NCBI RefSeq assembly: GCF_000485595.1
Contig: NW_014577088.1
Span: 536,496-577,814, forward strand
Direction of reading: 5' to 3'
DNA from: Priapulus caudatus
Lineage: Eukaryota; Priapulida; Priapulimorpha; Priapulimorphida; Priapulidae
Length of the DNA stretch: 41,319 nucleotides
The notes beneath the pieces are model-generated. The model was not told where the DNA came from and did no database searches. It worked only from the letters and a program-made list of their open reading frames with translations. Position 1 is the stretch's first letter. The number at the start of each line of letters is the position of its first letter. The position numbers and the translations under genes were made by a program. Below are positions 4,531 through 29,979 of this stretch, piece by piece.

Positions 4531-6034
4531 TACGTGGGTTTCTGGCTTTGTTCAAACTTTAGTTGTTCCCATTCAGTTTCAGAGATCATTCTTCATATTA
4601 GTAAAGATAAATCTAGTAAGAAAAATACTATCATCCATGCAACCCATTGGTATGCTGCAGTCATCGTCTTTAAAAAATTCCAGATAAATGTGTCACTGCG
4701 TTGTTTTCACAATTGGTAACCCTGCCACATTTTTCAAAGTGTAGTGCTGCCAACTGACCTGTAAAAGCATGGTCGTGTGTTCTTTGATATAGCTTTATGT
4801 AAGCCAATGACTGATTGACATAAATCAACTAGGTAAACAGGAGATATATAGAAATCTTCTCGTTGAACGTATACTCGGCACCATGCCAGGAATTTTTTTG
4901 CTTGGGATATATGTCCACATACTGCACAATTTCTCTATATATATATATATCATTTTGAAAGTTGGCCAGTATGACAGAGCTCAACTGCTGGAATGATAAC
5001 TGTGTGGACATTCTTCTATGTAATGACAAGTTCAACCCAGGAGTCAAACTGTTTTTATTCTCAACATCACTGTAATTGTGCTAGATACAGGTAACCCCCT
5101 ACAGAACAGTCATATATAGTTTAATTTATATAGCTGTATCATATCTAGTTAGCCATAATATTAAATTCACCACCAGGTGGCACTTGCATACACCTGATAT
5201 TGTTACAAACAGCATAATATAAGTACATGCACAAATGAGTGGCAGTGTGATGAATGTAACTATACAATGCTTAGGGTTTTCTAACCCTGTTATTTATGAC
5301 TGATAAGTGCTGACGTGCATTGTGAAAAGCATGCAAGACATAATGTGCATGTTGACATTCAGAATGGTACATCCTCATTCCCAACCCAAAACTCGTGTGT
5401 CCCACACCCTTGTAGACTTTATGTACGTACCCCAGTAGTGTAAACTGTAGCCAGACAGCTGCACCAGTCAGGGTACAAACATAAACAAGGGAAGTGCACC
5501 CCTTCCTTGTGGAGCTGTATTATGTACACATACTATACTAGGGGATGCAGACTAGTCAGGTATGTAGCCAAACAATTTCGAGGTGCAAAGGAGGATATCC
5601 CACCTTTAATTATATTCAAACGCTAGACTGCAGTGCTGGGAGAAATGTGGCTATATTATCAAGTCCATAATAAAAAATGTTCTATTATGGACTCTTGATA
5701 TTATTGATCATCACCGCAAGTAAATGCAGCTAGTAAAAACATTTAAATTAGTATTTGCAGTATAGCAATCAAATTCACGAGTGTAAGTCTTGCAAACGAC
5801 CTCACAGACCTGACTGACCTCACCTTAAACTGCATGTGACCTCCCAAATATTTGCATCACCCACCTGCACCCATTAGTTTAAATATGATCACCTACAAAG
5901 ACTCGCACACCCTAGTATATATATATGTAATCAGGAGCCGTGTCAATTGGGTATAACAGGTTTATATACTACACCCTGTATAATTGTTTGTGTACATGTG
6001 AATTATGAGCTGCCACATTATATTCAATATATAT

Positions 6035-7238: not shown

Positions 7239-7569
7239 TCATCGTCCAGCTCCTGCAGTGTTAACGGCGCCACCTGTGTTTCCTGGACCATTCTGATCCT
7301 CTAGATCACATAGTAAGGATGAGCCGCCATTCATGCCACAAGAACGTGTCCTACAGCATAGAATACGAAGATATAATAATATAAGAATGCCATAAGAACG
7401 TGTCCTTGAGCATAGAATATGTTATAACTATACGATGAGGAGAGGGTGAGAGCAAGACAAGGGACGAGAGAGAATCAAGAGGGAGAGAGCGAGAATGAGA
7501 TACAGGATATATAATTTATATATATATATATATATATATATACAGAGAGAGAGAGAGAGNNNNNNNNNN

Positions 7570-8604: not shown

Positions 8605-9403
8605 ACCCGCCTACTTCTAAATACACACAGTCCTGATTTAATCAATTGCAGCATATCATGGTAAATAGGAAAATCAGTGACCAAGAAAAAACATAGACAG
8701 GCTACTCTCTCTTTGCTCTCTCTTTCTCACAACGTGCAATTATGTTGGACACCCTTATACCTATGGATGATGCTCCCTAACTATATCTGCAAACTACTTA
8801 TTATTAGACAAGCAAAACCACTGATACATCACTTATGCCACTGTTTGCCAGCTACGTTTGCACTGCAAGATGCAACAGATAACAACAAATTATACATGTT
8901 TCAATGCGTGCACTTATGATACCTACCTGCAAGATAAGGTGCCATACCGTATTGACAAAACAGTATGAAGGATAGACAAACGTGCACGGGAATGTAGTTT
9001 ATTCCTTCACAGAATGCATTTCATTAAAACGCCTCATATTTAATGTACTAATATGTAGAAGTACAGAGCGATATCTTAACAGTAGCAGTGATCAAAAAAG
9101 TAATCACCGATGTCTTATTTATGTCACGGTATTTATTTGTATACACATGGAGATTTCCTGTTCTTTCACATAAAAGCACACCACACAACCACCAGAGAGT
9201 AAAATAGACTGCACCGTAGAGGCTTGGGCTGCTTGGGAAACAAATTGCCAAAGACTCACGTGTCCCACAAAACCTTCACTCACAGTGCAACTAGAAAACT
9301 TTTCAATGACAATAGCAAACAAAATCTCATACCACAATCAGCGTTTTTGTGGATAAGGAACATATTTAATATTTGGCTAGCACAGCTATAGCAGTTGTGG
9401 TTG
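8605..9403. other. No supported gene; left flank of the composite insertion
   Basis: This is AT-rich sequence with only short unsupported ORFs. The last four bases (9400-9403, GTTG) are the proposed target-site duplication, repeated at 19442-19445. Confidence 0.4.
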
Positions 9404-9808
9404 TGTTAGTGATTACACTATTGGTTAACGCGTGTTCAAGTGTTAACTGTCACGATACTATTCGGTACTATATGAGTAATATAGTGTTAGAGCCAACCGG
9501 GAAGGTTCTTAGAATCCAAACTGAAACCGACTTGTTATTCATTATCTGGTTCTGTGTGAACTGGTTGTGTTATCGTGTGGCTTGTTAAATAAATGTGTTC
9601 TGTTCATTAAAAGATATATAGTTCGTGGTATCCTGAACGCGACATTAACATATAGCTAGTGACGGTGGCTCCTGCGGCCCAGACTGCCGTGTATAATCGC
9701 TGCACGTGAGGCAGTCGCTCTCTTTACATCATGTAAGCAAGCCACACTGACGTGTGAATAAACTGCTCATAAGTTACTCACAATCTTATACGTTTCTATA
9801 ACGCAACA
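9404..9808 (+). mobile_element. LTR (405 bp) of a gypsy-type retroelement
   Basis: It starts TGTTAGTG and ends CGCAACA, giving TGTT/AACA terminal inverted bases. AATAAA occurs at 9588-9593 and 9757-9762. It is followed with no gap by a tRNA-complementary PBS. The last 41 bp (9768-9808) recur at 19401-19441 with one mismatch. The 4-bp flank GTTG matches the base quartet after that right-hand copy. The start is inferred from the TG and TSD; the end is firm because of the PBS. Confidence 0.85.
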
Positions 9809-9827
9809 TGGTGGCAGCGGTGGGATT
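9809..9827 (+). other. Primer-binding site, tRNA-Leu
   Basis: TGGTGGCAGCGGTGGGATT is the exact complement of AATCCCACCGCTGCCA plus CCA, the 3' end of animal tRNA-Leu (AAG-type isoacceptor, from memory of the human sequence). It begins at the first base after the LTR, as expected for minus-strand DNA priming. Confidence 0.85.
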
Positions 9828-11922
9828 GGCTAGGTCAATTAAGCTAGGCCAGGCGTGAACTTTCCCATCTGATTCACCATGCCCCAAAAATCTCCTGAGT
9901 TCGCTGACATTGGTTGGCACAGGCATGTTCCTGACAGCACCAACCTTTTCAGGATCAGCTGTGATGCCATCTGTAGACACTATCTGACCTAAACACTTGA
10001 TGGAGCTCTGGCTAAAGACACACTTGTCTCGGTTCAGAGTGACTCCGGCGTTCTCTAGGCGAGTAAGAGCTCTAGTCAATTTAACACCATGTTCTGCTTG
10101 GTTACGACCAAAAACTATGACGTCATCCATTTGTGAAACTGCCCCCGGAATACGTTCTAGAATCTGAGCTATTCGCTTCGAGAAGTGTTCCGGAGAGCTG
10201 GAGATCCCGAAGGAAAGACGCTTGAAACAGAATCGACCAAATGGAGTGATGAACGTCGTCAGCTTCCTTGACTTCTCTGATAAAGGAATCTGATGAAACC
10301 CTGCATTAGCATCTACCTTAGAGAATACTTTCGCATTGGCCAGCTGCCCGAGTACATAATCGACTGGCGGTAACATGTCTTTCACGCTGGACTGCCACGT
10401 TGAGCTTAGTCAGATCCACACACAGGCGAACGTCTCCTGATGGCTTCGGCACAACAACTATAGGAGCACACCAGTCCGCCGGCTCTTCCACCGACGAAAT
10501 AACTCCTATTGCCTGCAGTCGGCTGAGCTCTTCTTTCACCCTGGGAAGAAGAGGGAGGGGAATCCTTCGTGGCGCACTGATAGTGTACGGATGTACGTCT
10601 TCTCGCAGCTTTATCTCGTATGGAGTCTCAAGCTTCCCCAGTCCGGTAAACAAACTTGGAAACTTCTTTTCCACTGAGCCAACAACGGAGATGATTCCAA
10701 GTTCATGGGAAGCTTTGCCGCTCAACAGATTTGAGGCTTTCTCGAAGATGTAGACTTCCTCTACACACGACTTTTCTTTGAACTTTATCTCAGCACGGAA
10801 ACAACCATAGGTATGGATAGGCTTATGATTAGCCCCAAGGATTACTCTAGAGGATGACTCCAGCCTGGTCCCCGGAAACTCACGGTCGAACACTTGTCGC
10901 AACATTACAGATACATCTGCCCCTGTGTCCACACGAAACTTCACCTCCTTATCACACACAGTGATAGGAAATGTCCACTGTGGGTCGCGACCTGACTGGT
11001 TGCCCACACTTACTTCTCCTAGGAAGACATCAAACTTCACCTCCTTATCACACACAGTGATAGGAAATGTCCACTGTGGGTCGCGACCTGACTGGTTGCC
11101 CACACTTACTTCTCCTAGGAAGACATCTGACAAAGCGTATGAACAAGACTGTGTAGTTACTTCATTTACTGTCTTGGCCTTCCGACATACCTTCTCAAAA
11201 TGCCCTTTGAGTTGGCGTCGCCGGCCGTTTACATTTTTGGCAGGGCATAGAGCGATTATGAGCAGTTTCCACACCACGGACACCTCTTCTGACCATACTG
11301 TGACGTCGAACGTGCAGACTTCTTCTTGTCATATCGACCTTTGGCATGTACGGCTAAAGCTTCAGCACCGACTACCGTAGTTGATGTCAACTTTCTTACC
11401 TGGTTCTTTACCTGGGCTGACTGACGAGCCAGGTCTGTTGCAAGCTTCAGGGTTAAGTCCTTATTTACTTGCATACGCTCAGAGAGATGCTTGTCTCGGA
11501 TGCCAACAACGATTCTGTCCCTAATTAGCTCTTCCTTTAGAGTGCCGTACTCACAATGTTCGGCGAGTGTGTGTAGAGCAGTAATGAAGGAATCAATTGG
11601 TTCATCCAGACCTTGCACTCTCCCGTTGAATTTAGCTCTTTCAAAGATGTGTTATGGCGGACAATAAAGTATTCCTCGAACTTCTTCTTGACACAATCAA
11701 AGTCTTGAGACTCATCACTTGCTTCTGATACAGCAAATGTAAAGGAAGAAAATATCTCGTCTGCCTTCTCTCCCATACAATATGTCAAAGTGTTCACCTG
11801 GTGCTGTGGGGATTTGTTGTCTAACCCTGAGGCTACCTTAAATCGTTCAAACCGCTTTATCCACCTGGTCCATGAGTTAGGCTGAGAGAAATCGAACGGC
11901 TCTGGTGGTGAAAATTCGCCAT
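9828..11922 (-). pseudogene. Inverted, truncated gypsy gag-protease-RT fragment
   Basis: Order on the minus strand: gag from about 11922 (SPPEPFDFS, WTRWIKRFERFKVASGL), a zinc-knuckle region near 11290-11180 (CPWCG, CPAKN, GHFEKVCR), an aspartic protease with DTGAD at 10929-10915, then reverse transcriptase with VDANAGFHQIPL (motif A) and MDDV (10130-10122, motif C), ending after ELRRFLG near the RT/RNase H connection. Integrase and most of RNase H are missing. Frameshifts are visible near the gag start, near 11540-11620, near 10390-10320 and near 9900; an in-frame stop follows. A 96-bp in-frame tandem duplication precedes the protease. The fragment is antisense to the LTR and PBS it touches at 9827/9828, so it is not an ordinary internal region of that element. 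Confidence 0.9.
10936..11127 (-). repeat. Perfect 96-bp in-frame tandem duplication in gypsy
   Basis: The units 10936-11031 and 11032-11127 appear identical and encode the same 32 residues twice (from DVFLGEVSVG to DKEVKF) just before the protease DTGAD. Exact identity in an otherwise decayed ORF means the duplication is late or an assembly effect. Confidence 0.9.
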
Positions 11923-12076
11923 AACACTTACAGTATAGTGCTCCCGACACAGACGTGTGCACGTGAATTCGTTGCACGTGTGAATCCCGTTTTAGCTGGC
12001 TTGCACAGTCTTGCCTGTTTACTGGGTCAACCCTGCTGAATTATCTCCAGATAAGAAGATAACTAACAGCTGTTAA
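11923..12076 (-). other. Gypsy 5' leader between PBS-like site and gag
   Basis: About 155 bp between the PBS-like sequence and the probable gag ATG (11922-11920). The length is usual for a gypsy untranslated leader. No LTR lies beyond the PBS-like site; viral sequence starts there instead. Confidence 0.5.
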
Positions 12077-12090
12077 CACTGCTGCCACCA
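12077..12090 (-). other. Second PBS-like sequence at the virus-gypsy junction
   Basis: Minus strand TGGTGGCAGCAGTG matches the PBS at 9809 in 13 of 14 positions, including the first ten. The base before it belongs to the viral side (GTAGCTTTGT), not to an LTR ending in CAACA. The viral segment is thus joined at the exact outer edge of the PBS. Confidence 0.65.
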
Positions 12091-12107
12091 ACAAAGCTAC
12101 CCACTCC
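12091..12107 (-). other. Probable residual viral trailer
   Basis: Seventeen bases (minus strand GGAGTGGGTAGCTTTGT) lie between the L gene-end signal and the PBS-like site. By position they would be the start of the viral trailer. Assignment rests on position only. Confidence 0.4.
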
Positions 12108-12117
12108 TTTTTCTTAA
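12108..12117 (-). terminator. L gene-end (transcription stop/polyadenylation) signal
   Basis: Minus strand TTAAGAAAAA, the same ten bases as the signal upstream of L at 18561-18570. Here it is not followed by the GTAAC gene start, as expected for the last gene. An A/U-rich motif ending in a short A-run is the usual mononegavirus gene-end form. Confidence 0.75.
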
Positions 12118-15100
12118 TATTTGATTCAATGATTCAGTCAGGCATACTCGTTACACCAACCACGGCCAAAATACGACCAAAAGGGAGCACTCCGCACACT
12201 TGAACGTGCACGAGCACCGCTCCTGTTGCTATACTGTGATCTTCCCGACAGACGGCGGCACTAGCTCAATATACTTATCCAGACAGCATCGATGGCCTCT
12301 CACATTTGAGACTCTTCAACATACCCATACTCTCTTCTGCGCCCGAAGAACCACCAGTGTTCAATCAAGGGGGAGGACAAACGCCAGTCTTCAGCCTCTA
12401 GCATAAATTCAAAATTAGACTCTTCACAATCCACTTGCCAGCACAAGCGGAATGGTTCCTGCTCGTGTCCGTGTAGGTGGAGAGATATATCTCTTTGGAA
12501 GAAAATTCGATCATCATACGATAACTGGCAAGCTCTTCCGAGACAGAGCTCTTCTAGGAGTCATGATCCTATTATCACGATTATCTCTCTGTATTGCCGA
12601 TACAGGATCATCACTTCCCACTCCCATTCGTGCCCAGGAGGAATCTCTCAGTTTCGGTCCGCGCTCGTATTGATACTTCATCAGCGAGTGCTCCAGTTCA
12701 GTCGAGTCAAAGGATGCAAATCCAAAAAAGGACCTTGAGGAGATGAGTTTCGACAGGCAACTTGTTGAGTAGAGACCCATCTGGGACTCCGATAGAGATT
12801 ATAGCGTCAGCACTCCCCAGCAGGTGCCTATCGCTCTTAGGCCGAACGTGATAGGGCCTTGTGGTTGTCTGGCTCTTGTAATCAATGATACCATAGTACC
12901 ATATGTCATTTCTAATCACAGATCTTTGTGAGTGAATGATGTGGCCCGGGAAGAAGTCACAGCTCCTCCTTATCAGATGCATTCCCTGAGGAAGTTCCAT
13001 GTGAGAGTGAGACGAGTTGTCGATGATCAGATCACCCTCAAGGAAGTCTGGTAGTATGTGAGCAATGTTACACTGTAGTGTAAGACCTATGTTCAAGGCC
13101 AATCTGCAGGCATCATTCCTTACGCTCCCCGGATGTAACTCTACACAATACCCTTCTGTATATCTATTCTCGCTTTCTATGACGACGCATAACAATCACC
13201 TCCATCATCTGCTAAACTAACCACCATCTTTATGCCATCTTTCGCGATCTGGTGAAGGAGCACCAATAGGTCGAATGTTAGAGGGTTACAAGCTCCTAGA
13301 ACCCACGATGCTTCTGCCTCTCTTCATGGGGTGGTGTGAGTCTCGGTCTCCTGTCGAATCGCGCGGTATAGCGGTCGCTCATAGTCTGATGTGCATGCGA
13401 TCATGCGGAGGCACGTCTGAACAGGCATACCCTCGACGCGCGCCCCACTGACGTAGAATTCCTCTGAGTCCAATACAGTGGGCTCATTACACCCCTCGAG
13501 TAAAGACTGATCCGTAGATCCGATTGATGATCCTTGCCTGATCGTTGGCTTGCGGCACAAAAGTTCCACTGATGACGTAGTTGTAATGAGTATTATATCA
13601 TTGTCGTACTATCGTGACTGTATAGTGGTCGCGTATATGCTTGGTACTAAACGTCTATCATATGCGTATATAAATTACTCAAAAGTGATCTACGTATTTA
13701 GAGTACAATCACATCTTTAATAACAATAACCTAAACTAACATATACGCCCATGAACAAGGCAGATTACGTGTACATAGGTGTACGCGGCACAAAACACAA
13801 CTTACGATTCTAACGGTCGATAGGATGCTCACACACGCAAAGATATATACGTCTTGTTCTGTCAGAATACCGAGAGGCAGAGGCAGAAGGACGCGCACAA
13901 AGGCGTGCTCCTTTAAATATCGCGTCCCCTCTATTGTCTTACATTCTGGTCACGCGGGCATATCGACCGCTCTCATTGGCTGACACGTATAGTGGTCGTC
14001 GCGTGTGGGTGGTCAGCGTTTAAACAAAGACTTCTGTCTCCAACTATTTCTTATTCTATCTATATTTGTCTATTACTAGTTATTTGCATATTTACTTATT
14101 AACTCATTTCTCTGCATTACATAGTTGTAGTGCACTAGGTCTGCCCCATGTTTAATTCTGTCAATTAGGATTTGGGCTAGGGATTTCGACGCAGTGTGGG
14201 GACTGTGTGGTAGGATTCCTCCAAAGTATGTCCTAACCTCTGATGCGAATCCGCATTCTACGGTTGAACCGAGTACGGTTGCGAGCATGACAAGCGGTCC
14301 AGCTGATCACCCGACGGTTAGGAGATCTAAGATGTTATTTAGTGTGTCTCCCAGTTCGACCACGAACCAACAGTTGTAGTGCTAGGCTGTGGATGAACAC
14401 ATCGAAGGCCATCAAGGTAGTGTCAGTCAAGCTGACAAAGCTTGGCCTTAGGGTTGATGTAGATGACTCTTCATTGACCACTCGTAGCATGCTGCCCCTC
14501 CAAGCTACCAGATGTTCCGCCCATTTCCATGCGATGTAGACAGCTAGGCCCGAATTCACATCCACATGAGCACCTTCTGCTCGAATAGCGCGTTGTTTCT
14601 AGAAAATCAACTAAGTGGCCTAATGGTACCCCAGGATATAGGGGGCTTCTTCCTAGAGTATAAGCATCCTCTAGTACGATCCTTGTGTTGCCGTCGTCCA
14701 ACACAGTCAATGCCCATTCCCCGCTTACGTCCTCTCCACATAATTCTCTCAGGGCAAGGAGGTTAATGCCATAAAGGATTACGGTCTGGAAGCATAAGAA
14801 TACATCTCTTGTAGACCTCGAGTACTTGATGGCTGTATTTGTCACAATCTTGCAGTGAGAGGAGAAGTTGATTTTTATGAAGGAAATTTATCATCAAACC
14901 GCCAGCTCCACTCACTTGGTTCAGTCTATGAGCTAAACTCCCTCCTGTTATGTGGTCAGCAGCTGCTTCTAGATCATTCTTGCTGATCGACATCTTCTCG
15001 GCGAGTAGGATATCCAAAAGTTTCCCGAATTTTTCATCTTCTGTGGAACGCATCCAAGGGCCAATGGTGAGGATCTTCTTGAGGTTGGTTACCATGCTGT

Positions 15101-18100
15101 CTGTATCCAAAATTTCCCAATTCGATTTCAGTTTTAACTTTAGTGCGTGATCCAGCGTATGGACTCTCCTCTCCCCTGCTCAATGGCTTGAAGCTCTCCG
15201 TATCGACTACGATCAAGATAGAACTCTCTCCATCGCCTAGGTTTTCACTCCACCGGGATAGCCTAGCTTGATGGTTCGGGCATGCGTGTCACGCCCACCA
15301 TAGTCGCTCCCCACGTTTGTTCTCTCAGCCGATCAGCTATTTCAACTATCGGTATGTCTACTGGTCCTTCAAGCACCTCCTCTAAAGTTCGGATCCTTTG
15401 ACCTTCTCTTCTCAGCAGATAGAAATCTATTCCCGTTTTGTCGAAGAGGTCAACTGAATCCTAAAACTCCGACTCTGGGATGATGGTGGTTCCTGCAAGG
15501 CTCGTCCTCACTGATCGCAAATTAGCAAACTTTCCAACGCTCCTGTCAATCAAGGACACATTTGCCAGCCTCATTAAGTAATTCGCAATAAGCGGGTTGA
15601 ACGGGGTAATCGTAGCAAGGTCTTTAATCAGTAATCTCTCGCTCTCGGACGATCGGGCTGTGAAGAGAGAAGCCAGCGTTGGGTTAACCACCTTTCCGGT
15701 CTCAAGTAGTGAGTCTCTAACAGCCAGTCTGACCTTTTTTCTGCCTGAATCGGGAGGCTTACGTTGAGGCTATAGGGATCTTTGATCAATAGCGAGATGT
15801 CTCTATTCTCCGAGGGCCTGAGATCAATCAGTTGCGAGATCTCAGCAAAGACCTCGCTGTCCATAGATGAGCAGGTCATGATCGTGCTCAGGGCACTAGT
15901 CAGCGGGTCCATCTAACCTCGATAACAAAAGGAGGAAAACCCAGCCACAGGCTAGCCTCCCAGTTGTCGAGGGATAAGGCACAGAGTAGCTAAAGTCACG
16001 GCCGACATTTCATGCCACTCTAACAAGGCACTCGTAGCCTCTATGACAGCTAACACGTAGCACGCAACTGGGTTATGATCATTTCTCGCAATTGACATGC
16101 CCGATGAAAAATATGACGACAATCGATTTGACAGCGTCCTAATCCCGTTGTTTGACGCTAACCCCATTCTTGATGCCTTCTTTAATGCCGCACTAACCTC
16201 CGCCCCGCTGAGGTAATATCGCTTAGAATACTCAAATAGTACGGAAGAAAACCACGTCTCCGACCACTTGACCTCCCAACCAAGTTTTACTGACTCCTCT
16301 ACCAACGTGAAGACAAAACTGTCCACAAAGTTCTGCACAGTAATCCTCTTCTGGAGCATCGTCTCTTCAGACGGCACGCGAGCGACGGTGGTTGTCGCCC
16401 TGACCCAGGAGAGCTGCCGCGACATCTGGAATCATAGCGACTTTTGTGATCATAATAATTGTCGCCCATGTCCAACCCTTCTGTCGCAGCCCCTCCATCC
16501 AGTGCCCAACTCCTTTTGTGCTTAGTGTGGTCTCAACTGGCTCGTCGGCAACGTACAGAGGCGGCCAGTAGCAATCTTGAATGACCAGCAGGCACTCATG
16601 AGGGAAGATTTGGGAGTACGCAAACGAGCGCTGCAGCCCAAGCATGCGATCGAGACATCCGAAAAGCGGATCAAGCGCTTGATGGCTCATCCTCAGGCAC
16701 CATAGCACAAAGTCCAAACTAAAGAAGATGAACTTCGATGGCCCCTTGGAGAATGGAAAGGTCAGTCGGAAGATGGTGTTGATCAGGAGGACCTCGTCCA
16801 TTGTCATACTCTGACTACGCACGTACGGGAATAGTCCTTCCCCGATGTTTTTCTCCGTTGCTACCTGGACTAGTCGCATGTTATACGTCAATTTGCAGAA
16901 ACCTAGTGCCTTCTCAATCTTGGGCTCCCTCTCCTTAAATACGGCTGTCAGGATCTTGTCGCTATCAGGAACATCCCGCCTCTCTACAGCTTCTATCGCA
17001 TCCTTCACGGAGATCGTATCAGTGAACAGGAAACGAGGGATTACCCTCCGACCAGCCTCCCCTGATCTTCTAGGTGGCGGTTTTCCATAGTACGCTCGGT
17101 ACGCACTCGCATCATAATTCTGTATAGAATTCTTCCTCCCTGTGCTGATCGCCTTATCGGCTAGCAGGTCCGATGCCTCTATGAAGTAATCAAATGACAA
17201 GCATTTGGTTACAACAATATGCTGGAAGTCGAGCGCATCCCAACCCCGTCTACCTGGCTCGTTCCATCGGCGAGAGGTGATGCTGTCTCTAATATCGTCG
17301 CGGATGGGGCCAGTTAAATTGGTTAACCAATTAACCGCTTAAATGGCAGGTGGTCACCCCTTGTTTCTATGGAAAAACTCCTTACAAAACATGTAAGTCG
17401 CCATGTAGCCCCCCCCCAAAGCTGCTAAAGTGTCCACTATTACTGGTTTCTTAATGTCTTCCATGAGAGCTTTTGCTGATTTCTCGGTGTCAATGACCGG
17501 GAAACCGAAGGATTTCCATAGGCCCCCTATCTCAAGTCGCATCTGGCCTTGCCAGGTTGTCCTCACTGGACTGAGCATGTATTGACACAACCTAGAGTTG
17601 GCAAAGTTGCGAGTCTCCTCTTCCATTGCGTTAACAAACTCGTTCTTGACTACCCTCTCGACGTCACGAAGTATAGCAGCAATGGCCAAGGTGGGCACTA
17701 ATTTGATCACGTTGTGAATGTTGTTCCCGTACATCTCCAGATCGTCCAATCCTGCAGCGAGGAATTCAGCTACTTCTTGATGTAGAGATATGCCTGGGTA
17801 TTTTTGGCATTTGTCGCTGATGATCGCCTATTGTAGTGAAGAGTAGAACGATAATACACAGAATTGAGCACTCAGCCATAACTGGTAGGTGCCAAAGATC
17901 TTTCTCATCCCCTCTCTTCGGGCCAGTATGACAACGACAAGCTCGCCGTAGAACTCTACTGTGAGAGCTGTGGGAGGTGAAGCTAGAGCGACTCTCGGTA
18001 CTATTTCCACATCTTTTATAAGCTTTCGCAAAGAAGATCTTCCAACTGAACCAGCGCTGCATCTCAGGGCTAATGAGGTCGTCAGGTCTTAAAGACGGCA

Positions 18101-18404
18101 CATGGGTGGCTCCACTCAGCCGCATCCAGTCAACACACCCAATCGCAAGACACCGACAAGCGGCAATAATGGGCTGTACTACGCTTGGCCGGCCTTTGTG
18201 CGAGAAGGCCTCATTTGTGCTCATGAACCCAACTAGATCCCGCTGGAAGTGCCTGATGTCGTAACTTCGAACAAGTTCCAAGTTGGTAGAAATGAGTTCT
18301 CGGTGTTCCTTCCGTAAGCTTCTAGGACTATCTGAGAAACGTTGAATGAACTCAACCTCTCCATCGAGGATTGGTGAAGCAAGGTGTCGGTCGCATCGAA
18401 ACAT
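12118..18404 (-). pseudogene. L: Endogenous mononegavirus L (RNA polymerase/capping/methyltransferase), frameshifted
   Basis: Proposed start is the ATG at 18404; an in-frame TAG lies upstream. N-terminal ASPILDGEVEF fits the conserved SPL/I region. Successive frames give GGLWKSFGFPVID (near 17540-17480), DKAISTGR, KEREPKIEK (near 16930), motif A SLDFVLWC (near 16720), motif B GLRQKGW (near 16490), motif C GQGDN (GDN 16399-16391) and the SETWFSSVLFEYSK region near 16250. The capping domain shows GSRT (15153-15142) and HR in GGSLAHRLNQ (14930-14925). Sequence near 13630-12700 (DLLVLLHQIAKDGIK) fits the methyltransferase region. At least eight frame changes and stops break the gene. The L transcription unit (18560-12108, 6.45 kb) is full-length for the order. 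Family within Mononegavirales is not decidable by eye. L is the viral replicase; this copy cannot be translated intact. Confidence 0.9.
13615..14009. other. LTR-like insertion within L, tentative
   Basis: A segment of about 370 bp without viral-like frames is bounded by imperfect direct repeats: TGACTGTATAGTGGTCGCG at 13615-13633 and TGACACGTATAGTGGTCGTC at 13981-14000. On the minus strand it has TATTTAAA near 13913 followed by GC-richer sequence and an ATTAAAG poly(A)-like signal near 13713, a layout like a solo LTR. Terminal TG/CA and a TSD could not be fixed. It could also be a non-conserved stretch of L. Confidence 0.3.
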
Positions 18405-18505
18405 CGCATTTGAGCAAGTTCTATGTGCGTGAAATCGCTCTTTATCCCTATGCTCGTTCGTCGAGCTCTATATCGATCGGTGAAGGCTTTAGAGTCCTCT
18501 ATCTA

Positions 18506-18542
18506 AGCGTTCTCTGGGGCTTAATTATCTCGAGAGAACGCT
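18506..18542. other. 10-bp hairpin in the L leader
   Basis: AGCGTTCTCT at 18506-18515 pairs perfectly with AGAGAACGCT at 18533-18542, with a 17-nt loop. It lies in the 156-nt untranslated leader between the L gene start and the L ATG. Confidence 0.7.
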
Positions 18543-18555
18543 ATATCTTATAATA

Positions 18556-18570
18556 GTTACTTTTTCTTAA
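18556..18570 (-). promoter_or_regulatory. Viral gene junction upstream of L
   Basis: Minus strand TTAAGAAAAA (18570-18561) followed with no intergenic base by GTAACTATTA (gene start from 18560). The TTAAGAAAAA-GTAAC pair resembles the other junction at 19076-19092, which supports a shared viral stop/start signal. Confidence 0.8.
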
Positions 18571-18761
18571 TTCCATTAGTCGTGATTGGAGGAGATGTCT
18601 TTCAGATCCTAGTAGCTTTGTCTCTCTCTCTCGTGCTTGGAAGGATGATGTTGGGTAGATTCTACATCTTTCTCTTCGCCGATGATCGGGTTTGTCTTGT
18701 TGGTGATAAGGACTGGCTTGGTAGGACTACCCTATCGCGAGTGAATCGTACCACTGGAGAT
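18571..18761 (-). other. 3' untranslated region of the small viral gene
   Basis: This lies between the TAG at 18762 and the gene-end signal at 18570. I see no additional ORF of note. Confidence 0.5.
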
Positions 18762-19070
18762 CTATTGCCATGAAGCCAATAAGCCGGTACATGATAACCT
18801 TCTTCGCAGATCTTCAACGTCAGAGGAAGCATGTTTTCCTTGGGCCCCCTTGTACCAGGAACTCAGCGGACATGACAGATTTTCATTTAAAATAAAACTC
18901 CATTCGCCTTTGAAGCATATTAAATCATGTAGGAGTGATGCTCCAATAAGACAAGATAATGTCTTAATATCCTCTAAGGTCCAGATGTAGAAAGATAGCT
19001 CAAAACGATTCACACCTCCGTTGAATGTTGTAAATTGGTAGTCAAGGTAGAGATGACTACTATCCTCCAT
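18762..19070 (-). CDS. Small viral ORF between two gene junctions (102 aa, intact)
   Basis: The ATG at 19070 lies six bases past the GTAAC of the upstream junction (GTAACCAATCATGG), a very short leader typical of mononegavirus mRNAs. The ORF runs uninterrupted to TAG at 18764-18762, and a 3' UTR of about 190 nt leads to the next gene-end signal. It starts MEDSSHLYLDYQFTTFNGG and contains aromatic-rich stretches (FELSFYIWTLED) and Ser/Gly-rich C-terminal sequence. I see no signal peptide, membrane segment or known domain. By gene order it is an accessory gene just before L. Unlike L it has no visible lesion, though at 309 bp chance preservation is possible. Confidence 0.7.
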   Translation of the reverse strand: MEDSSHLYLDYQFTTFNGGVNRFELSFYIWTLEDIKTLSCLIGASLLHDLICFKGEWSFILNENLSCPLSSWYKGAQGKHASSDVEDLRRRLSCTGLLASWQ

Positions 19071-19075
19071 GATTG

Positions 19076-19092
19076 GTTACTTTTTTTCTAAA
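19076..19092 (-). promoter_or_regulatory. Viral gene junction upstream of the small ORF
   Basis: Minus strand TTTAGAAAAAAA (19092-19081) is followed directly by GTAACCAATC (gene start from 19080) and ATG at 19070. The pattern matches the junction before L with an A-run two bases longer. Confidence 0.8.
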
Positions 19093-19400
19093 GGAGTTAT
19101 CTTTCGTATCTAGTTGTTATCAATAGTTTATATCTTGAGTATCTTCTCTAATCTAAAGATACTAATAACCATAAAAAAGCTGCCTTTCTTAGACGCACTC
19201 AATCGATGATGCCGTCCGTCACCACCCCGCTCGAGGCCACTCATGTGTTGCTGACCATGCATGTCAAAATGGAAGCTTAGGAGCTCTAAATTCAGTTTCA
19301 TTAAGGCCAGAGGGACTTTCAAAGCTTAACCCCAACACTCCGGTCAGGACCCGGGTGGGCGCTGGGTTGATTGAAGCCAGTCTCAAGGGAGGCATGGGTA
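19093..19400 (-). pseudogene. 3' end of an upstream viral gene, truncated
   Basis: Two overlapping frames are open here: one from the segment edge (about 19396) to about 19270 (contains RVLTGVLGLSFESPSG), and another from about 19322 to a stop at 19128. A frameshift probably links them. About 35 nt of 3' UTR then lead to the gene-end signal. Its place before the small ORF and L suggests the gene that usually precedes L-proximal accessories (often glycoprotein or matrix), but no domain is recognisable. Confidence 0.45.
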
Positions 19401-19441
19401 CATAAGTTACTAACAATCTTATACGTTTCTATAACGCAACA
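19401..19441 (+). mobile_element. 41-bp terminal LTR copy, right end of the composite
   Basis: Identical to 9768-9808 except one base, ending at the same CAACA. Nothing upstream of CATAAG resembles the rest of the LTR; viral sequence abuts it. It is followed by GTTG (19442-19445), the proposed duplication of 9400-9403. Confidence 0.85.
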
Positions 19442-19445
19442 GTTG

Positions 19446-20658
19446 TCACAAGCAATAATTAATACAGAATGCATTTAAGGATACTCTCAAGGTTTTAGGA
19501 AAAATTTTACCGATTTTTCATTTTCAACTTTATTCGATGGCTAACACTATGTGCCACCTGTGTACGTGCTCATTTCTCCATATAACGGTACATGTGAACT
19601 GTCAGAGCGTTTTGCTTGCCCGCATACATGTGTAGTGAGTCGCGGCTGACGCCATTATGACGTCAGACACATGATACAACCAGCATTTTCACGATATTCA
19701 CTGAGCCAGTATCCGTCAACATCAGGACCCTATTATCTACTCCTGATCAACATCAACCCTGCTACAGCTGTACTACTACCCTGATCCAATAAGTATCCCA
19801 CAAGAGCCTAAAATAGTTCTCACACCTCGCAACGCACCTTACATAAAGCGCGCGTTTGTTGACAGTGACGTCAGGCAATGGGCGGGTTCACGCCATTTGC
19901 ATGGAATTGCGTTGGTCACCTCGTAATTTCTCAGAATTTCTCAAGGTGCATGGAACATTTTACCAATTTAGTGGCGTCAGTTAGTCATGGATATGTCGCA
20001 GTAAGTATTAACAGTAGATATTTCACATACGTTCACCCATTTTACACACAGGCGGTCACTCATTGTGAAAAATAGAAAAACGATGACTTCTCCGTTTCGA
20101 TTTCTGACATAGTAGCCGATGTATAAATGGATATTTCTCTGTAATTACAACTCGGATTAATTAAATTTTACACTCGTTTTAATGGTAACATATTGCTGTA
20201 AAGAAGTGCGTCAGGGATTGTTATTAAGTGCCGTATTTTATTAGTTATGCCTCTTTATTCACTAAAATTTTCAATTCTAACACACAACTTGATTTTTAAA
20301 CAGTTTTTTCCAGTTTTCTCGGTAAATATGAAAATTAAAGAAAAATCCAGACGCACTATTTTGGTCCATATTGTGCTTAACATGTGGCAAAATTTTTGTA
20401 TCCTCACTCTTTCTGGTAGTTGAGAAATATCCAAAATACCATTTTTACATAAAAATTCAAAATTTGTGTGGTAACATTAGGTGCTGGAAATTTCATGAAA
20501 TTTTTTGGCTTGAGCATAGAGATATATCTCCTCTATAAATAAAACAAGTGATTGATTCGATTCATTCGCCAATAAACGTTTAATCTTCACTAGAGCAATA
20601 CCCGTGTAAAAGGTGGAGAGTAACCTCAATCGCTTTGCTAGCACAATATGGCTGCGGA
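19446..20658. other. AT-rich host sequence, no supported gene
   Basis: Right flank of the composite insertion and region downstream of ZNRD2. The 66-codon ORF at 19878-20075 has no recognisable feature. No RNA gene or repeat was identified. Confidence 0.4.
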
Positions 20659-22524
20659 TCACCTCATACCAGCTCTGAGTTGCTGCAGGGCTAACATGGC
20701 ATCTGCGCATGCTTTGACCAGTCCACACAACTGGGTGCTGTACTCAACACTATGACTACGAGCGAGTTCTATCGTTGCCCACTGCAGCTTGTCCTGCAGG
20801 GCCCCCCATGGCGAGGCCAGCCCTTCCGTTTCACATACTGTCACTTGCTTCGGTAATGCCGTGTCTGCATCACTTGGTAGAAAGACTCTTTGCATTGGTG
20901 GCGAGTTGAGAGTTGAGGAGGTGGGGAGAAGAGCAGTCGCCCCCAGGTCTGGGACGAGATGCACTTCCTGCTCCTTGATTACACTTGCAACAGCTTGCGG
21001 TTGCCCCTCTGCTTCTCTTACTTGGGTCCTAGCTGCCGTGTAGTTGAATGCTACAACATCAATATAGCAAGTCTTTATTCGAAATTGACAACTCTCCACT
21101 GCTCCTACATCCATCATTCCACAAAATAATATGAATATACTTCGAAGTTGGATTTTTAATATGGCTAGCGACCTGCAGCCCCACCAAATGCTACAGTATA
21201 ACTACGTGAAAAAACATTACTTGGAAAATACTGCGGTCAAACCAAAAAATTGGCACGTGCTACAATTGAGACGTAAGGAATTAGGTTCAACAATTCCATA
21301 CAGCAATGCTCCGCCATACTATGAAGGTTAATGTTATGAACATTAGACCATAAGAATTGTGCAAATTATTATCACTAAACTTGCCTTTGCCAAGTTTTTT
21401 TTAAAAATAATGAGTGGGCTTTACTAAAGTGACCAACTCAATCGCTGTAAATAAATGTTGTCAAATCAAATATACCCCAGTGGCTGGAATCCAGCTAAAT
21501 GAATGTGCAGGCATTCATACAGCATCAGCAGTGCAAACAGTTTCATCACATACACATAAAACATGCAATGCTTTCTCACCTGATCTTTCTTTAAAAATAA
21601 TCCTAATGAAAAAACATGTACACTGATACAGCTAAGACACACCTCCACACATGACAGGGCATAGAGCTTTAATGTTGATGCCCATGCTTGGCTAACACAC
21701 CTGGATTATCTTTGATATTTTCCTCATCAAGCTCACTGCATGTGATGCAATAGTCATTGTCTTTCTTGTCTCTTAGTAATATAGTCTGAAAATACATCAG
21801 AAACCCATTTTAATATTTACACCTACATGCTCTATTGTTATTTTATTAATTGCCCTTACTCCTTGATCTTATCCAACAAGTAACAATATATGTAGCCTGG
21901 CACCAGGTGAATACTATGCATTTTTCAATGCCAAAGCTGATACAACCTTCCCACATGGATCCAAATAGCAGGTCATATAAATTTAAAGTCAAATAATTCA
22001 TCACAGTGTATCACTTTACAAATTACAGTCAGAATTATCAAGGTGTTCACACTTTGTCTTTGTTTCCTGTTACTTTCTTAGATAATACAATAAACGTTTT
22101 TAGTAACTTATAACATGGACACACCTTGTATAGAGAAGTTCATGCTCACAACCTACTCCATCCACAAACTATAGACAAAAATGGTTTTTAACAATGAAGG
22201 CAACCCATAGGCATTTATAATAATTCCTGACCTTTTCCTTAATTTGCATCTCTTTCCTTTTAACCCCCGCCCCCAATTTCTGAAGTTATTGGGTTTCAAT
22301 TGAGCATGCAGCAAATACTGTTTAATTAATGCAAGCAGTTTTTTTACATGGTCATTGCAGACTTGGCAAGATGTTCCTAGCATCTTGTAACCCTTCAGTA
22401 GGTACTCTGACATCAGCTTGCTGATCTTGGAACTGCGATCCTGTCGCGCACGAATCACTTTCATCTCAGCTTCGGTGGGCGGCTGCCAGTTGTCTTCACC
22501 TAACACAGAGCAATGCACATACAT
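20659..22524 (-). CDS. ZNRD2: ZNRD2 (SSSCA1) zinc-ribbon autoantigen homologue, three exons
   Basis: Exons on the minus strand: 22524-22348, 21785-21701 and 21032-20659; 636 nt, 211 residues (human about 199). Donors are CAT|GTAAAA and CCAG|GTGTGT; acceptors are tattttcag and acacggcag; phases agree. The N-terminal region has PPTEAEMKVIRARQDRSSKI, ISKLMSEYLLKGYKMLG and CQVC. Exon 2 has TILLRDKKDNDYCITCSELD, completing the four-Cys zinc ribbon. The C-terminus (LQWATIELARS, QLCGLVKACADAMLALQQL) matches the family's conserved end. Using the ATG at 22524, Trp13 aligns with the human start-to-Trp spacing, so no extra exon is required, although a tag|GTGAAG acceptor lies just inside. The human protein is a small zinc-ribbon antigen linked to mitosis and tankyrase binding. 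Spacer residues between exon 3 start and the C-terminal motif are poorly conserved and Ser/Pro-rich. Confidence 0.9.
21161..21331 (+). CDS. Small ORF inside ZNRD2 intron 2, uncertain
   Basis: An ATGG start (MASDLQPHQM) opens a 56-codon ORF ending SNAPPYYEG on the strand opposite ZNRD2. The composition (KKHYLENTAVKPKNWHVLQL) is protein-like, not low-complexity. There is no poly(A) signal close by and no recognised domain. It may be a nested small gene, a retrocopy fragment or chance. Confidence 0.25.
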   Translation: MASDLQPHQMLQYNYVKKHYLENTAVKPKNWHVLQLRRKELGSTIPYSNAPPYYEG

Positions 22525-24538: not shown

Positions 24539-24950
24539 TCTCAGCGTAGGCCCGACCAGGCTGTGCGACCGGATTGTCTATACTATCCTATAGTACGGGT
24601 ATCCTACGGTATCCTAACCTACCGATACGCTTTCTTGGAGCCTACTCTCAGCTAACTTAGGTAAATCTGATCTTAGTAAACATCAGCACCAAACAACTCC
24701 AATTAACACTAGCGATTATTGAATTTATTAACATAAAATACCCCTACCGTTACTCAACAAGAGTTACCCCCCCCAAACTCAGTAAAGAGATACTCAATAG
24801 TTTACTTCGACACATTCGCGCTTACATGCTTACCATCATTCATCCATGATTGATGCGATGATGCGCATCATGGGAATATTTCGGCTCGCCATCTAACGAC
24901 TCTATAACATGACGCCAACTATTGTTTGCAAGCCTCTTCTTCGCGCTATC
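24539..24950. other. No supported feature
   Basis: Intergenic sequence between the MITE and the CT microsatellite; nothing recognisable. Confidence 0.4.
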
Positions 24951-24952
24951 CC

Positions 24953-24954
<2 letters not shown>

Positions 24955-24991
<37 letters not shown>

Positions 24992-25078
24992 CTCGCTCTC
25001 TCCTCTCTCTCTCTTCTCCTCTCTCCTCTCTCTCTCTCTCTCTCTCTCCCCTCTCCTCCTCTCTCTCTCTCCTCTCTA
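24955..25078. repeat. (CT)n microsatellite
   Basis: Imperfect CT dinucleotide tract at the left edge of duplicated block A; a (CT)n tract also opens block B at 32825. Confidence 0.9.
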
Positions 25079-25256
25079 AATTCCTTCCTGTCCTCACATC
25101 CCCCCCCATTCTAATATATCTAATATATGTCTCCAACTCCACTATAAATGCTATCGCGAGTAGATCATCTCAAAAGTAATTACACAGGAAATACTTTTGG
25201 GGTTACTAATATCTGCATTAACTATAACCAGCAAAAATTGATAGATTATTACCACT

Positions 25257-26296
25257 CACCGGGCGCAACACTGGGGGAACTTTTATGTGGACCTCCCTAA
25301 CTCTGAACACCTTATTTTCGGGTGAGCCAAAAATGTCGATAAGGTTATTATCGTAAAACAATCCATATTACACAGTATAATTAAAATAAATAAAAACCCA
25401 GGTGTCAATGCAGCCAATCAATTGATGCAAATTCAGACCGATATCTAAATTAGAAACCTTCTTAATATCATTAAAATCGACAGTTTCACCTAGAATAGTA
25501 AGACAATCTCACGGGCCATGGGAACGGACCAAGACATTCACCACGCGCTTCGCAGCGAACTGTTCTATAATAGCTACGTAACTCCACACACGAACCGCCC
25601 ACCTTCTCTAATCGCTGCTAGCTTCTTCAAGCAAGGGACACATATTCTGCGACTTCTCCCTTACTATTCCCTGTACAGTGCAAAAGCAGCAGAGAGCTTT
25701 CTGTCTGCGTCTGCTGAGAAACTTAATCTTTGAAGCTCAATGCCCAGCAAAGCCTCAACCACCTTCTTTATTTGCACTTCATCAATACATGACAAATGCG
25801 AATCTATATTCAAGCAATTGCAAAATATTTGTGAAATTGACTCAAAGGAACGTCACATTGGCTTCTAAACACTGTCTCTTTCCGTGTCATACAGCTTTTG
25901 CATTATGATTTCCTCCTTCATCTTGAATTCGATGCGTAACTGTGGTCACCATTAGCACAGTCTGTGTGTGCTTTGAGCTACTTAGCTAATCTAAGAATAA
26001 ACATTTTGATTTGATCTATAAATGCATCCTAGTAATTTCATTATGACCATCATTGATTCATGCATATGAATGATTGAATATTTGATGAATTGATTGAATG
26101 ATGAATGATGATGAATGAATGATGAAGAATGAATTATTGAATGAGTGATGATTGCATGCAATAATGACATCACTAAGCCCACACTCTCCAAATTAAGACC
26201 TACTGAAATACTGAGTAGTTCGCTTCCGCCGGCCAGACTCACGTCTAATTGGTCTCTGCTAACCCCCCCCCACTTCAACACGGGTTTCCGCCCTTG
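25257..26296 (+). mobile_element. hAT element, internally deleted (copy A)
   Basis: Same element as at 33053-34118: left TIR CACCGGGCGCAACACTGG after TTACCACT, right end near CCGCCCTTG. The transposase C-terminus is present but broken by indels (SSAKAAESFLSASAEKL at about 25670-25730). The right target duplication is degraded. Confidence 0.7.
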
Positions 26297-28154
26297 TACA
26301 CTTATCGCGATACTAAGAAAAACTCGACTCATCTAAATTTTTCAAAAAATGATGGGAGTTTTTTGATGTAGCAACTCAAAACTGGCCTGTCTACTACTAA
26401 GTCGCTAATAAAAAATTATGCAAACCACTAGATGACTATGCCAGTTACAACACGTCCATGTGGTTCGCATGTTAAGTTACCCGCTTCGCATCACATTTGT
26501 ATCTGTGATCGTTTAGATAGAGAGCGTGATATTATACGAAACTGATGTTAGACCGAATAATCAATTTTAGATTAATGGAGGCTACAACCGAGTAATAATA
26601 GATTAGATGATCGCACAAGTAAAAATGGGTTGTCAGCTTAAGTTAGTTGACCAGACCTTAGCCAGTAGAGTATACTAATATTATTTACGAAATGATTTGG
26701 CAGACATGAAAGATACGAGATGTCACTTAATGATACGCAGTTTGAAGAACGAGCATGAGAGAGAGAGTAAACTATGAGAGGATAGAAAAGATATATATAG
26801 CACGGCACACCGTAGACCGTACGTTGATAATAGACCATTACACATCGTATGTGTAAAACACGGCGCTGTATTTGCCCATCATATAACGAGCAGTGAAAGA
26901 GACGCCGCGAGCGGGGCCGAGGCACGAAGCTACAGCACAAAATCTGCGCAAGTAAGAACCGATCACCACCGGATTGCCACCCCAGAACCCCCGATGATTG
27001 TTTTATTAGACATCACAGCCACTCTGGACTCTAGAGCATGGCGACGAGTCTGAGACCTCAGCGCAGCCGACCAGATCTGGAGAAACAATACTCAGCATAG
27101 ACAAGCACCTCCCTCTTTTGAGCGATACAAAATCCCGCACCCGAACAAACCGAGACCGAATAGATAAGAGTGTGTCCGTTATCCTCACCATGTAGACGCT
27201 GCACCAATACTCAGCCGTTACAGTATATTAGAAGAGAAGACGCGAAGCGTGGCAGGCCCTGATGATTATATCTACAATGTGAAGAGCTATGATTACCGAT
27301 ATGAAAGATCGAGAGAGAGAAAATAGGATGTAGTTTAGCAATATAGCAGAACGACGATTGAATAGTAATTACTCTAAAACGAGCGAACAAGTTTGCTTCA
27401 ATATGATGAACTCAAAATAAAGTAGAAAGAAAAAGAAGTAGTATGACGAGCAAACTGGTTACGAATTGTAAGGTGAATAGACCCGAAGAATCAACATGAG
27501 ACATGCGCAAAAATAGGCTTAGTTCACACACCACACCCTAGCACACTCGAAACCAGCCTCCCTACTCCCCACTTCGCCTCAACACCCATCAATTCTGTAC
27601 ACATCACAGTATATTAGCTCGCCCCCGAGCAATCGCACCCGGTTCCTTGCTAATAAGGCTCTCCTCCCTGTCATAGCACGCTATCCTCCGCTCGAGTGAT
27701 CCGCCCTATGATGCCATGGGCCCACGGGCCCTGTCGTCGCGAGTGAATCTTTCTGATCCAACTCGCGATACCGCTATCTGATATTTTATTGACTCTAGAC
27801 GCCTATCAGAACCTAAATGCACCTCGAGGTAGCTATCGAAGACTGCAACTCCAACGTCACATCCTCACCACACCTTCGCCTCTTATTAACACCGAATTAG
27901 ACCCCTATGTTGATTGACCCGATATACCGAGCCCCTATCCTGCTGCCAGCGCACTTCCAGCATACAAGTCCACTGCTCATCAAAAGAGACCCTACGTACG
28001 ACCCGACCATCTTGCGCGATGCCTGACTGTATTAGCTTGTACTGAAATGTTGAATTTTTTTGGATTTTGATTGAGTATGGAGATCTCAGAGGCGCCCCAT
28101 AGCCCCCCTGGACTAACGCGCATCACGCGGTAATTATAGCGTACCCCGCGGTAA

Positions 28155-28325
28155 TTATCTCTTTGCTGGGTTTTCGGGTGGTAGTGGGGGGGCTGGGGGT
28201 GTTGGGCAGATCTCCGGCGGTGGGGGGTGTTGGGGGTGCGGTGTACTGAGCCTGTGGCATGGTGGGGGAACATTTTGTGGGGCGGGTGTCCGTTCTGGTG
28301 GGGAGGAGGGAAACATTTGCGGGTG
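28155..28325. other. G-rich segment with G-quadruplex potential
   Basis: The plus strand has many closely spaced G-runs (GTGGGGGGGCTGGGGGTGTT, GGTGGGGGGTGTTGGGGGTG). This segment lies in material present in copy A but not in copy B of the duplicated block. Confidence 0.6.
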
Positions 28326-29664: not shown

Positions 29665-29672
29665 ATCCCCCC

Positions 29673-29704
<32 letters not shown>

Positions 29705-29889
29705 CTCTCTCTTCTTTCTCTTCTCTTCTCTCTTCCATCTCAGTCTCTGCCTCTCTATCTCTCTCTCCTCTCTCATTCTCTCTCCCTCTCTCTCTCTGCT
29801 CTCCTCCCTCTCCCCTCTCACTCTCTCTCTCCTCTCTTCTCTTCTCCCTCTCGCTCTCTTCTCCTCTCTCTCTCCTCTCTCCATTCTCT

Positions 29890-29927
<38 letters not shown>

Positions 29928-29932
29928 TCCTC

Positions 29933-29974
<42 letters not shown>

Positions 29975-29979
29975 GTTCT

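What the first reader, a model, noticed from the sequence alone, without database searches (positions are those of the whole stretch)
9400..19445. A mononegavirus segment bounded by LTR-retrotransposon ends and a shared 4-bp TSD
The left end is LTR plus tRNA-Leu PBS; the right end is a 41-bp copy of the last part of the same LTR (40/41), ending at the identical CAACA. GTTG flanks both outer ends. Between them are only gypsy sequence and a viral gene block. Seen: the repeats, PBS and flanks. Known: retrotransposon reverse transcriptase can switch onto non-retroviral RNA, and such chimeras have been integrated. Inferred: after copying about 41 nt from the PBS, minus-strand strong-stop DNA jumped onto viral RNA. 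The plus strand here equals viral genomic sense, so the template would have been genomic RNA. The composite would be a fossil of RNA-virus capture by a gypsy element, integrated by its integrase.
Basis: partly seen in the sequence, partly recalled or inferred. Interest (0 to 1): 0.92.

Follow-up and report, generated by a model that had tools for sequence, protein, structure and literature searches.

The report
RNA-virus fossil packaged by a retrotransposon
A stretch of marine-worm DNA holds a broken piece of an ancient RNA virus that a jumping gene apparently copied into DNA and inserted into the worm's genome, and the joints still show how the copying went astray.

Summary
The host genome (COX1 100% identical to Priapulus caudatus) holds sister copies of the LTR element. 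They show that GTTG on the left is the LTR's own 5' end (TGTTG...CAACA) and that the family makes 5-bp target duplications. With those ends the composite has a perfect 5-bp duplication, GTTGT (9394-9398 = 19442-19446). The left LTR is followed by 19 nt complementary to host tRNA-Leu; the family's genomic PBS matches about 14 nt. That is the expected 3' end of plus-strand strong-stop DNA. It joins directly to an INVERTED gag-pro-RT piece of the same family, which ends exactly at its PBS, the natural 3' end of minus-strand DNA. Next comes a negative-strand viral block: inferred trailer, broken L gene, two gene junctions. Then the last 41 bp of the LTR. Best explanation: aberrant reverse transcription by a gypsy-type element switched between its own intermediates and full-length viral RNA, and integrase inserted the product. 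Which viral strand was copied cannot be told. Retroelement capture of RNA viruses is already in print; the preserved intermediates make this an unusually readable variant. Later insertions sit in the LTR and in L.

The parts
9394..9398 (.). left copy of the 5-bp target-site duplication GTTGT
   Evidence: matches 19442-19446; 5 bp is the family's length, exact in 8 of 11 other paired ends
9399..9808 (+). LTR of a gypsy-type element, U3 end TGTTG (here GGTTG) to CAACA; about 208 bp native plus a nested insert
9443..9649 (.). nested insertion in U3: 197-bp repeat 9448-9644 (TGTCACG...GCGACA, solo-LTR-like) flanked by TTAAC on both sides
9809..9827 (+). PBS, 19 nt identical to the complement of host tRNA-Leu 3' end plus CCA; reads as the 3' terminus of plus-strand strong-stop DNA
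   Evidence: 19-nt run; host tRNA-Leu AAG and TAG genes; 6 of 6 sister LTR-PBS borders leave the tRNA after about 14 nt and run on as TTAACAGC or TTGACAGC
9828..12090 (-). inverted internal piece of the same gypsy-type family: RT, protease, gag region, 5'UTR, ending exactly at the PBS complement (12077-12090); carries a 96-bp tandem duplication 10936-11127
   Evidence: best sister copies 94-95% identical, others lower; RVT_1 1.6e-21; end at 12090; duplication
12091..12107 (-). 17 nt beyond the L gene-end motif, inferred viral trailer, directly abutting the gypsy PBS
   Evidence: sequence and motif position; that 12091 is the true viral terminus is inferred
12108..12118 (-). L gene-end-like motif ATTAAGAAAAA
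12303..18467 (-). broken L (polymerase) gene of a mononegavirus, in pieces in different frames with many stops
   Evidence: PF00946; solved L proteins E 1e-29; related endogenous copies match pieces across it
13578..14129 (.). transposon of about 536 bp (13586-14121) inside L with 8-bp duplication TAGTTGTA; hAT-like only by duplication length
   Evidence: repeat copies; duplication
18556..18570 (-). gene-junction-like motif TTAAGAAAAA|GTAAC upstream of L
18571..19080 (-). inferred small viral gene Y upstream of L (ORF 18762-19076)
   Evidence: bounded by two junction motifs; no homologue found
19076..19092 (-). gene-junction-like motif TTTAGAAAAAAA|GTAAC
19093..19400 (-). stretch found nowhere else in the genome, inferred 3' part of the preceding viral gene
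   Evidence: no homologue
19401..19441 (+). last 41 bp of the same LTR (end of U5), ending CAACA
   Evidence: 40/41 to 9768-9808; sister LTR ends 89-98% identical
19442..19446 (.). right copy of the 5-bp target-site duplication GTTGT

Best explanation
In the germ line of a priapulid worm, particles of a gypsy-type LTR retrotransposon that also held replicative RNA of a mononegavirus made one hybrid DNA during aberrant reverse transcription, and integrase inserted it. Shown by sequence: the two LTR ends, the 5-bp duplication, the PBS that matches tRNA further than the family's own PBS, the inverted unit ending at its PBS, the viral block with two gene junctions and sequence beyond the L gene end, and the 41-bp U5 end. 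Inferred: the order of copying. Route R: tRNA-primed minus-strand DNA of 41 nt jumped onto viral genomic RNA, ran to its 5' end, jumped onto the 3' end of a gypsy minus-strand DNA (PBS end), copied back into RT, then jumped onto the 3' end of plus-strand strong-stop DNA. Route F is the reverse: plus-strand strong-stop DNA, with its tRNA-copied PBS, was extended on gypsy RNA inside RT, ran off at the PBS, jumped to the 3' end of viral antigenomic RNA, and finished on minus-strand strong-stop DNA. I put R at 0.55 and F at 0.45 within this explanation. The locus is now dead DNA: L is broken, and the LTR and L carry later insertions.
For: Perfect 5-bp duplication at family-defined LTR ends. 19-nt tRNA match against about 14 nt in 6 of 6 sister LTR-PBS borders (host tRNA genes). 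Left unit = LTR + 18-19 nt, the known extent of plus-strand strong-stop DNA (stop at modified A58: recalled). Inverted unit ends at 12090, the outermost base of the PBS. One sister copy, C831, also has no LTR there and stops at exactly the same base before unrelated sequence, so this end is plausibly a real terminus of the element's DNA. The PBS is present twice, once in tRNA-templated and once in RNA-templated form. LTR and inverted unit belong to one family: contigs C1395, C192, C205, C1989, C831, C371 and C527 carry both. No near-identical second copy of the viral block (best other DNA match 70% outside the nested transposon). No run of N between 9394 and 19446.
Against: No reads, second individual or relative could be examined; no empty site was found. 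A 5-bp match has a chance of 1 in 1024, and so do the 5 extra tRNA nt, so neither alone is proof. The first LTR base is G, not T. Other LTR elements of the genome carry GGGAT-type PBS (5 of the 20 short sites read), so the extra bases could have come from such an RNA. 3 of 11 sister pairs show no exact duplication. That 12091 is the viral end is not tested. The junction motif was defined after seeing it. The 19093-19400 stretch is unassigned. Three or more template switches are needed.
Confidence: 0.82

Rival explanations
1. Serial insertion or break repair: an ordinary gypsy element inserted first; later a double-strand break inside it was patched with viral cDNA and an inverted gypsy fragment, deleting most of the element but leaving its two outer ends and duplication.
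For: LTR ends and duplication would be kept; nested later insertions show the locus is open to insertion.
Against: Does not predict a left break exactly 18-19 nt past the LTR with tRNA-specific bases absent from 6 of 6 sister borders, nor an inverted fragment ending exactly at the PBS.
Confidence: 0.1
2. Simple capture followed by inversion: the original insert was LTR-PBS-gag-pro-RT-virus-U5 (one or two template switches) and the PBS-to-RT part later inverted at the DNA level.
For: Needs fewer template switches; the inverted unit is precisely the part that would lie next to the PBS.
Against: Inversion leaves one PBS, but two differing ones are present: 9809-9827 with GGATT, and 12077-12090 with TTAACAGC next to it. 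Staggered breaks could duplicate it but not add tRNA bases.
Confidence: 0.05
3. Assembly artefact joining unrelated repeats and a viral fragment.
For: Draft assembly with a 10-bp N run nearby (7560-7569); no reads available.
Against: A false join would not be expected to create a 5-bp duplication at family-defined ends or tRNA-specific bases; no near-identical second copy of the viral block was found and no N run lies inside the composite.
Confidence: 0.03

Closest known systems
IAP-LCMV recombination in mouse cells (Geuking 2009, Science 323:393; content recalled, seen only as a reference entry and a citing sentence)
   Same: LTR element reverse transcriptase switches onto RNA of an unrelated RNA virus and the hybrid integrates.
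   Different: Experimental and arenaviral; here a natural genomic copy, a mononegavirus, a gypsy-type element, an inverted unit and a tRNA-copied PBS.
eBxnv-1 of Bursaphelenchus xylophilus (Cotton 2016, PMC5177903; abstract, outline and passages seen)
   Same: Non-retroviral RNA-virus polymerase inside an LTR element with PBS and polypurine tract; copy-choice reverse transcription proposed.
   Different: Nodavirus in a degraded Bel/Pao element with 132-nt matching truncated LTRs; the passages seen describe no tRNA-copied PBS, inverted unit or target duplication.
LTR-mediated retroposition of host mRNAs (Tan 2016, not held; as described in PMC5408686, passages seen)
   Same: Template switching between LTR element RNA and other RNA in particles, then integrase insertion.
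   Different: Cellular mRNAs joined at short similarities; here viral full-length RNA and joints at natural ends of intermediates.
Jingchuvirales glycoprotein capture by mosquito elements (PMC10084718; passages seen)
   Same: Negative-strand virus gene associated with Gypsy and BEL-Pao elements.
   Different: Glycoprotein gene amplified as part of an element; here a single dead insert dominated by L.

Membership tests
Gypsy (Metaviridae) LTR retrotransposon | LTRs with inverted TG..CA ends and fixed-length target duplication | tested here: met
   TGTTG..CAACA, 5 bp exact in 8 of 11 paired ends
Gypsy (Metaviridae) LTR retrotransposon | gag, aspartic protease and reverse transcriptase in order after the PBS | tested here: inconclusive
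   RVT_1 1.6e-21; protease 6e-4, below the Pfam cut-off; gag by position only, no gag family match
Gypsy (Metaviridae) LTR retrotransposon | integrase after RNase H in pol (versus Copia order) and placement in an RT tree | not tested
   absent from the composite; pol of sister copies not classified
Mononegavirales endogenous viral element | L polymerase homology | tested here: met
   PF00946 2.6e-36; solved L chains 1e-29
Mononegavirales endogenous viral element | conserved gene-end/gene-start junctions between genes | tested here: met
   two junctions A-run|GTAAC, the only two in the window on both strands; pattern set after seeing them, so suggestive
Bornaviridae or Nyamiviridae | placement by whole-L phylogeny | not tested
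   closest solved chains are 1711-1756 aa L proteins, bornavirus-sized by recall; whole-gene reading referred
Retrotransposon capture by template switching | hybrid bounded by LTR ends and one target duplication | tested here: met
Retrotransposon capture by template switching | junctions at reverse-transcription intermediates | tested here: met
   9827/9828 and 12090/12091
Retrotransposon capture by template switching | empty site shows a single event | tested here: inconclusive
   no empty site in this assembly; no relative held

The most novel reading that the evidence does not exclude
Priapulus LTR elements of more than one family captured mononegavirus RNA repeatedly, by end-to-end template jumping between natural termini of retroelement intermediates and of viral RNA. 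The window would be the best preserved case; an L copy fused to a BEL/Pao-like gag without an LTR between (C1398) and an L copy abutting a gypsy RNase H (C78) would be others. That would make retrotransposon particles a main door for such viruses into this germ line.
Probability: 0.25. Interest if true: 0.82.

Novelty: new variant of a known kind. Interest (0 to 1): 0.66.

Why it matters
How RNA viruses without a reverse transcriptase enter animal genomes is usually inferred from nearby transposons. Here the joints keep signatures of the copying itself: a tRNA-copied PBS that is normally replaced, the natural end of minus-strand DNA, sequence beyond the L gene end, and the integrase duplication. 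It makes the capture pathway testable joint by joint and gives a search rule (LTR + 18-19 nt of tRNA joined to foreign or inverted sequence) for finding more.

Tried and rejected
Rejected: GTTG as target duplication; a 4-bp or 6-bp duplication; a simple DNA inversion (two different PBS copies); viral mRNA as template (gene junctions and sequence beyond the L gene end); the viral block as a repeat family (no near-identical second copy; the repeat found is the nested transposon). Led nowhere: two scans of viral contigs for a free relative; homologues of gene Y and of 19093-19400; Rfam; ARAGORN on the window; an empty site. Literature: eight searches; no listed title or abstract start reports this locus or endogenous viruses in Priapulus, but only open-licence papers are held and long lists were capped (25 of 34; 15 of 49).
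Full report
Setting. The window is C28:536496-577814 of a 385-Mb genome held as G000. A COX1 gene of that assembly, read with the invertebrate mitochondrial code, is 100% identical over 447 aa to Priapulus caudatus and 93% to Halicryptus spinulosus. The host is therefore a priapulid worm.

Observation. The 41-bp repeat is real: 9768-9808 and 19401-19441, 40 of 41 identical. Sister copies change the rest. GTTG is therefore part of the LTR, whose ends are TGTTG and CAACA. For paired ends the script printed 14 rows. I leave out the window, one row that is a 3' LTR with a purine tract to its left (C205, 8365), and one without a partner end (C527). Of the remaining 11, 8 have an exact 5-bp duplication; the misses match 3, 2 and 2 of 5. 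The pairing of ends at C205 is mine. With the same ends the window has GTTGT at 9394-9398 and 19442-19446, 5 of 5. Its first LTR base is G where the family has T.

LTR. Queries with 9404-9830 matched sister copies in two blocks that are adjacent elsewhere (query 1-44 and 242-405), while 45-241 matched many other places alone. The insert, 9448-9644, begins TGTC, ends GACA and is flanked by TTAAC on both sides. It looks like a solo LTR of another element, and the native LTR is about 208 bp.

The PBS. After CAACA the window reads 19 nt identical to the complement of host tRNA-Leu plus CCA. The exact 20-nt tRNA 3' end occurs at two places in the genome, and ARAGORN calls both tRNA-Leu, anticodons AAG and TAG. 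In the element's own family all 6 loci where the LTR-PBS border was read (C1395, C192, C205:279989, C1989, C527, C1868) leave the tRNA after about 14 nt, some with point differences inside it, and continue TTAACAGC or TTGACAGC. Of 26 sites with up to two mismatches to the LTR-end/PBS pattern, the 20 not yet fetched were read in 56-57 bases. By their flanks they appear to be other elements, and 5 of the 20 contain GGGAT (L076, L079, L082, L092, L094), so such a PBS exists in the genome but was not seen in this family. Plus-strand strong-stop DNA copies about 18 nt of the primer tRNA up to a modified adenosine (recalled; the passages seen did not give this detail). The left unit, LTR + 18-19 nt, is just that molecule.

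The inverted unit. From 9828 the sequence is RT, then protease, then the gag region, all on the minus strand. The best sister copies, such as C1395 and C192, are 94-95% identical over the RT-side half; other copies and halves range lower, to 81%. The same contigs carry the LTR family. In sister copies the six bases before this point are CGCATA in place of GGGATT in 4 of the 5 loci printed (L031, L032, L036, L038; L033 differs), so the join shares only AT, one base short of the joint. At its other end the unit stops at 12090, the outermost base of the PBS. Of 9 sister loci aligned there, 7 reach the PBS and all 7 alignments end at it or within two bases. In 6 of the 7 the LTR follows; in the seventh, C831, there is no LTR and unrelated sequence begins at exactly the same base. 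That base is where minus-strand DNA normally ends. In the window the PBS is thus present twice, tRNA-templated on the left and RNA-templated on the right.

The virus. Separate stop-to-stop pieces from 12303 to 18467 match endogenous L copies elsewhere in the genome, Pfam PF00946 and solved L proteins (E 1e-29; these 1711-1756 aa chains are bornavirus-sized by recall). A protein search of one piece found 20 relatives at E <= 1e-5, nearly all unnamed, best 59-60% identical; full-length L proteins were outside its length limit. On the minus strand two gene junctions of the form A-run followed by GTAAC lie at 18556-18570 and 19076-19092; a scan of both strands of the window found no other, though the pattern was set after seeing them. 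An L gene-end-like motif lies at 12108-12118, followed by 17 nt up to the gypsy PBS. An L mRNA polyadenylated at that motif would not carry those 17 nt, and it would not span the upstream genes. The template was therefore most likely full-length genome or antigenome RNA. That 12091 is the exact viral end is an inference. Gene Y between the junctions and the stretch 19093-19400 found no homologue. A transposon with an 8-bp duplication TAGTTGTA (13578-13585, 14122-14129) split L later.

Mechanism. Both the plus-strand strong-stop end and the minus-strand PBS end, the partners of the normal second strand transfer, are present but not joined to each other. Two directions of synthesis fit, one using viral genomic RNA and one antigenomic RNA. 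The sequence does not choose; I lean slightly to the genomic route because tRNA priming naturally starts with U5. Integrase then needed only the two LTR termini. The left flank joined to the right flank matched across neither side of the join except at C28 itself, as two separate pieces; the right flank from about 19475 is a high-copy repeat, and 40 of 396 candidates were scored.

Rivals. Break repair inside an older element, a later DNA inversion, and misassembly each leave the tRNA bases, the PBS-exact end, or the duplication unexplained. None is excluded without reads or an empty site.

Novelty. Capture of non-retroviral RNA by LTR elements is in print: an experimental mouse case (recalled; reference entry), a nematode nodavirus in a Bel/Pao element, host mRNAs, and chuvirus glycoproteins. 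In the passages seen, none describes a tRNA-copied PBS or an inverted unit ending at the PBS. A search for Priapulus caudatus with endogenous viral element found no paper; one search listed 15 of 49 papers on priapulids and viruses, none on endogenous RNA viruses by title or abstract start (one is on a virus-like LTR element lineage, Troyka).

Wider context. L-like pieces occur on 11 other contigs by one query (E <= 0.001, some weak) and on C56 by another. Two other copies touch LTR-element coding sequence without an LTR seen between: C1398 (L end, A-run, then a DUF1759 gag) and C78 (L within about 30 bp of gypsy RT-RNase H). These could be further captures or plain juxtaposition; the window's own gypsy family was not found at them.

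Noticed in passing
L035 (G000:C831), about 3377: A sister element has no 5' LTR and stops exactly at the outer base of its PBS before unrelated sequence, the same terminus as window 12090; perhaps another stalled minus-strand DNA joined to other DNA.
   Followed up: partly
L070 / L096 (G000:C1398:10075-16100): A related L copy ends in an A-rich tract plus GTAACAATC and is followed about 30 bp later by a BEL/Pao-like gag (DUF1759, 1.5e-7) and RT-like ORFs with no LTR seen between; more L pieces follow from 16369.
   Followed up: partly
L058 (G000:C78), about 2355-2385: An L copy on the minus strand abuts a gypsy RT-RNase H reading frame on the plus strand (RT_RNaseH_2, 2e-24) within about 30 bp.
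   Followed up: partly
L069, L071 (G000:C56:689-698 kb): An L copy is split by about 5.6 kb; an ORF in the fetched part of the gap weakly resembles a retroviral-type aspartic protease (1e-4, below the Pfam cut-off).
   Followed up: partly
L031 (G000:C1395), 4735-5002 minus strand: A sister element has its 5' LTR followed by a second copy of the last 63 bp or so of the LTR before the PBS, another odd reverse-transcription product.
   Followed up: no
L055 / L073 (G000:C1374): An L copy with long open stretches (521 aa; one stop within the match), 67% identical to the window piece; looks younger.
   Followed up: no
window 10936-11127: A 96-bp tandem duplication inside the inverted protease region.
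   Followed up: no
window 22153-22524: Minus-strand ORF with a match to PF06677 (autoantigen p27, 1.9e-7), perhaps a host exon.
   Followed up: no
window 24900-35000: Several direct repeats spaced about 7.8 kb (25072/32860, 25527/33335, 26080/33908) suggest an old large duplication or two copies of one element.
   Followed up: no
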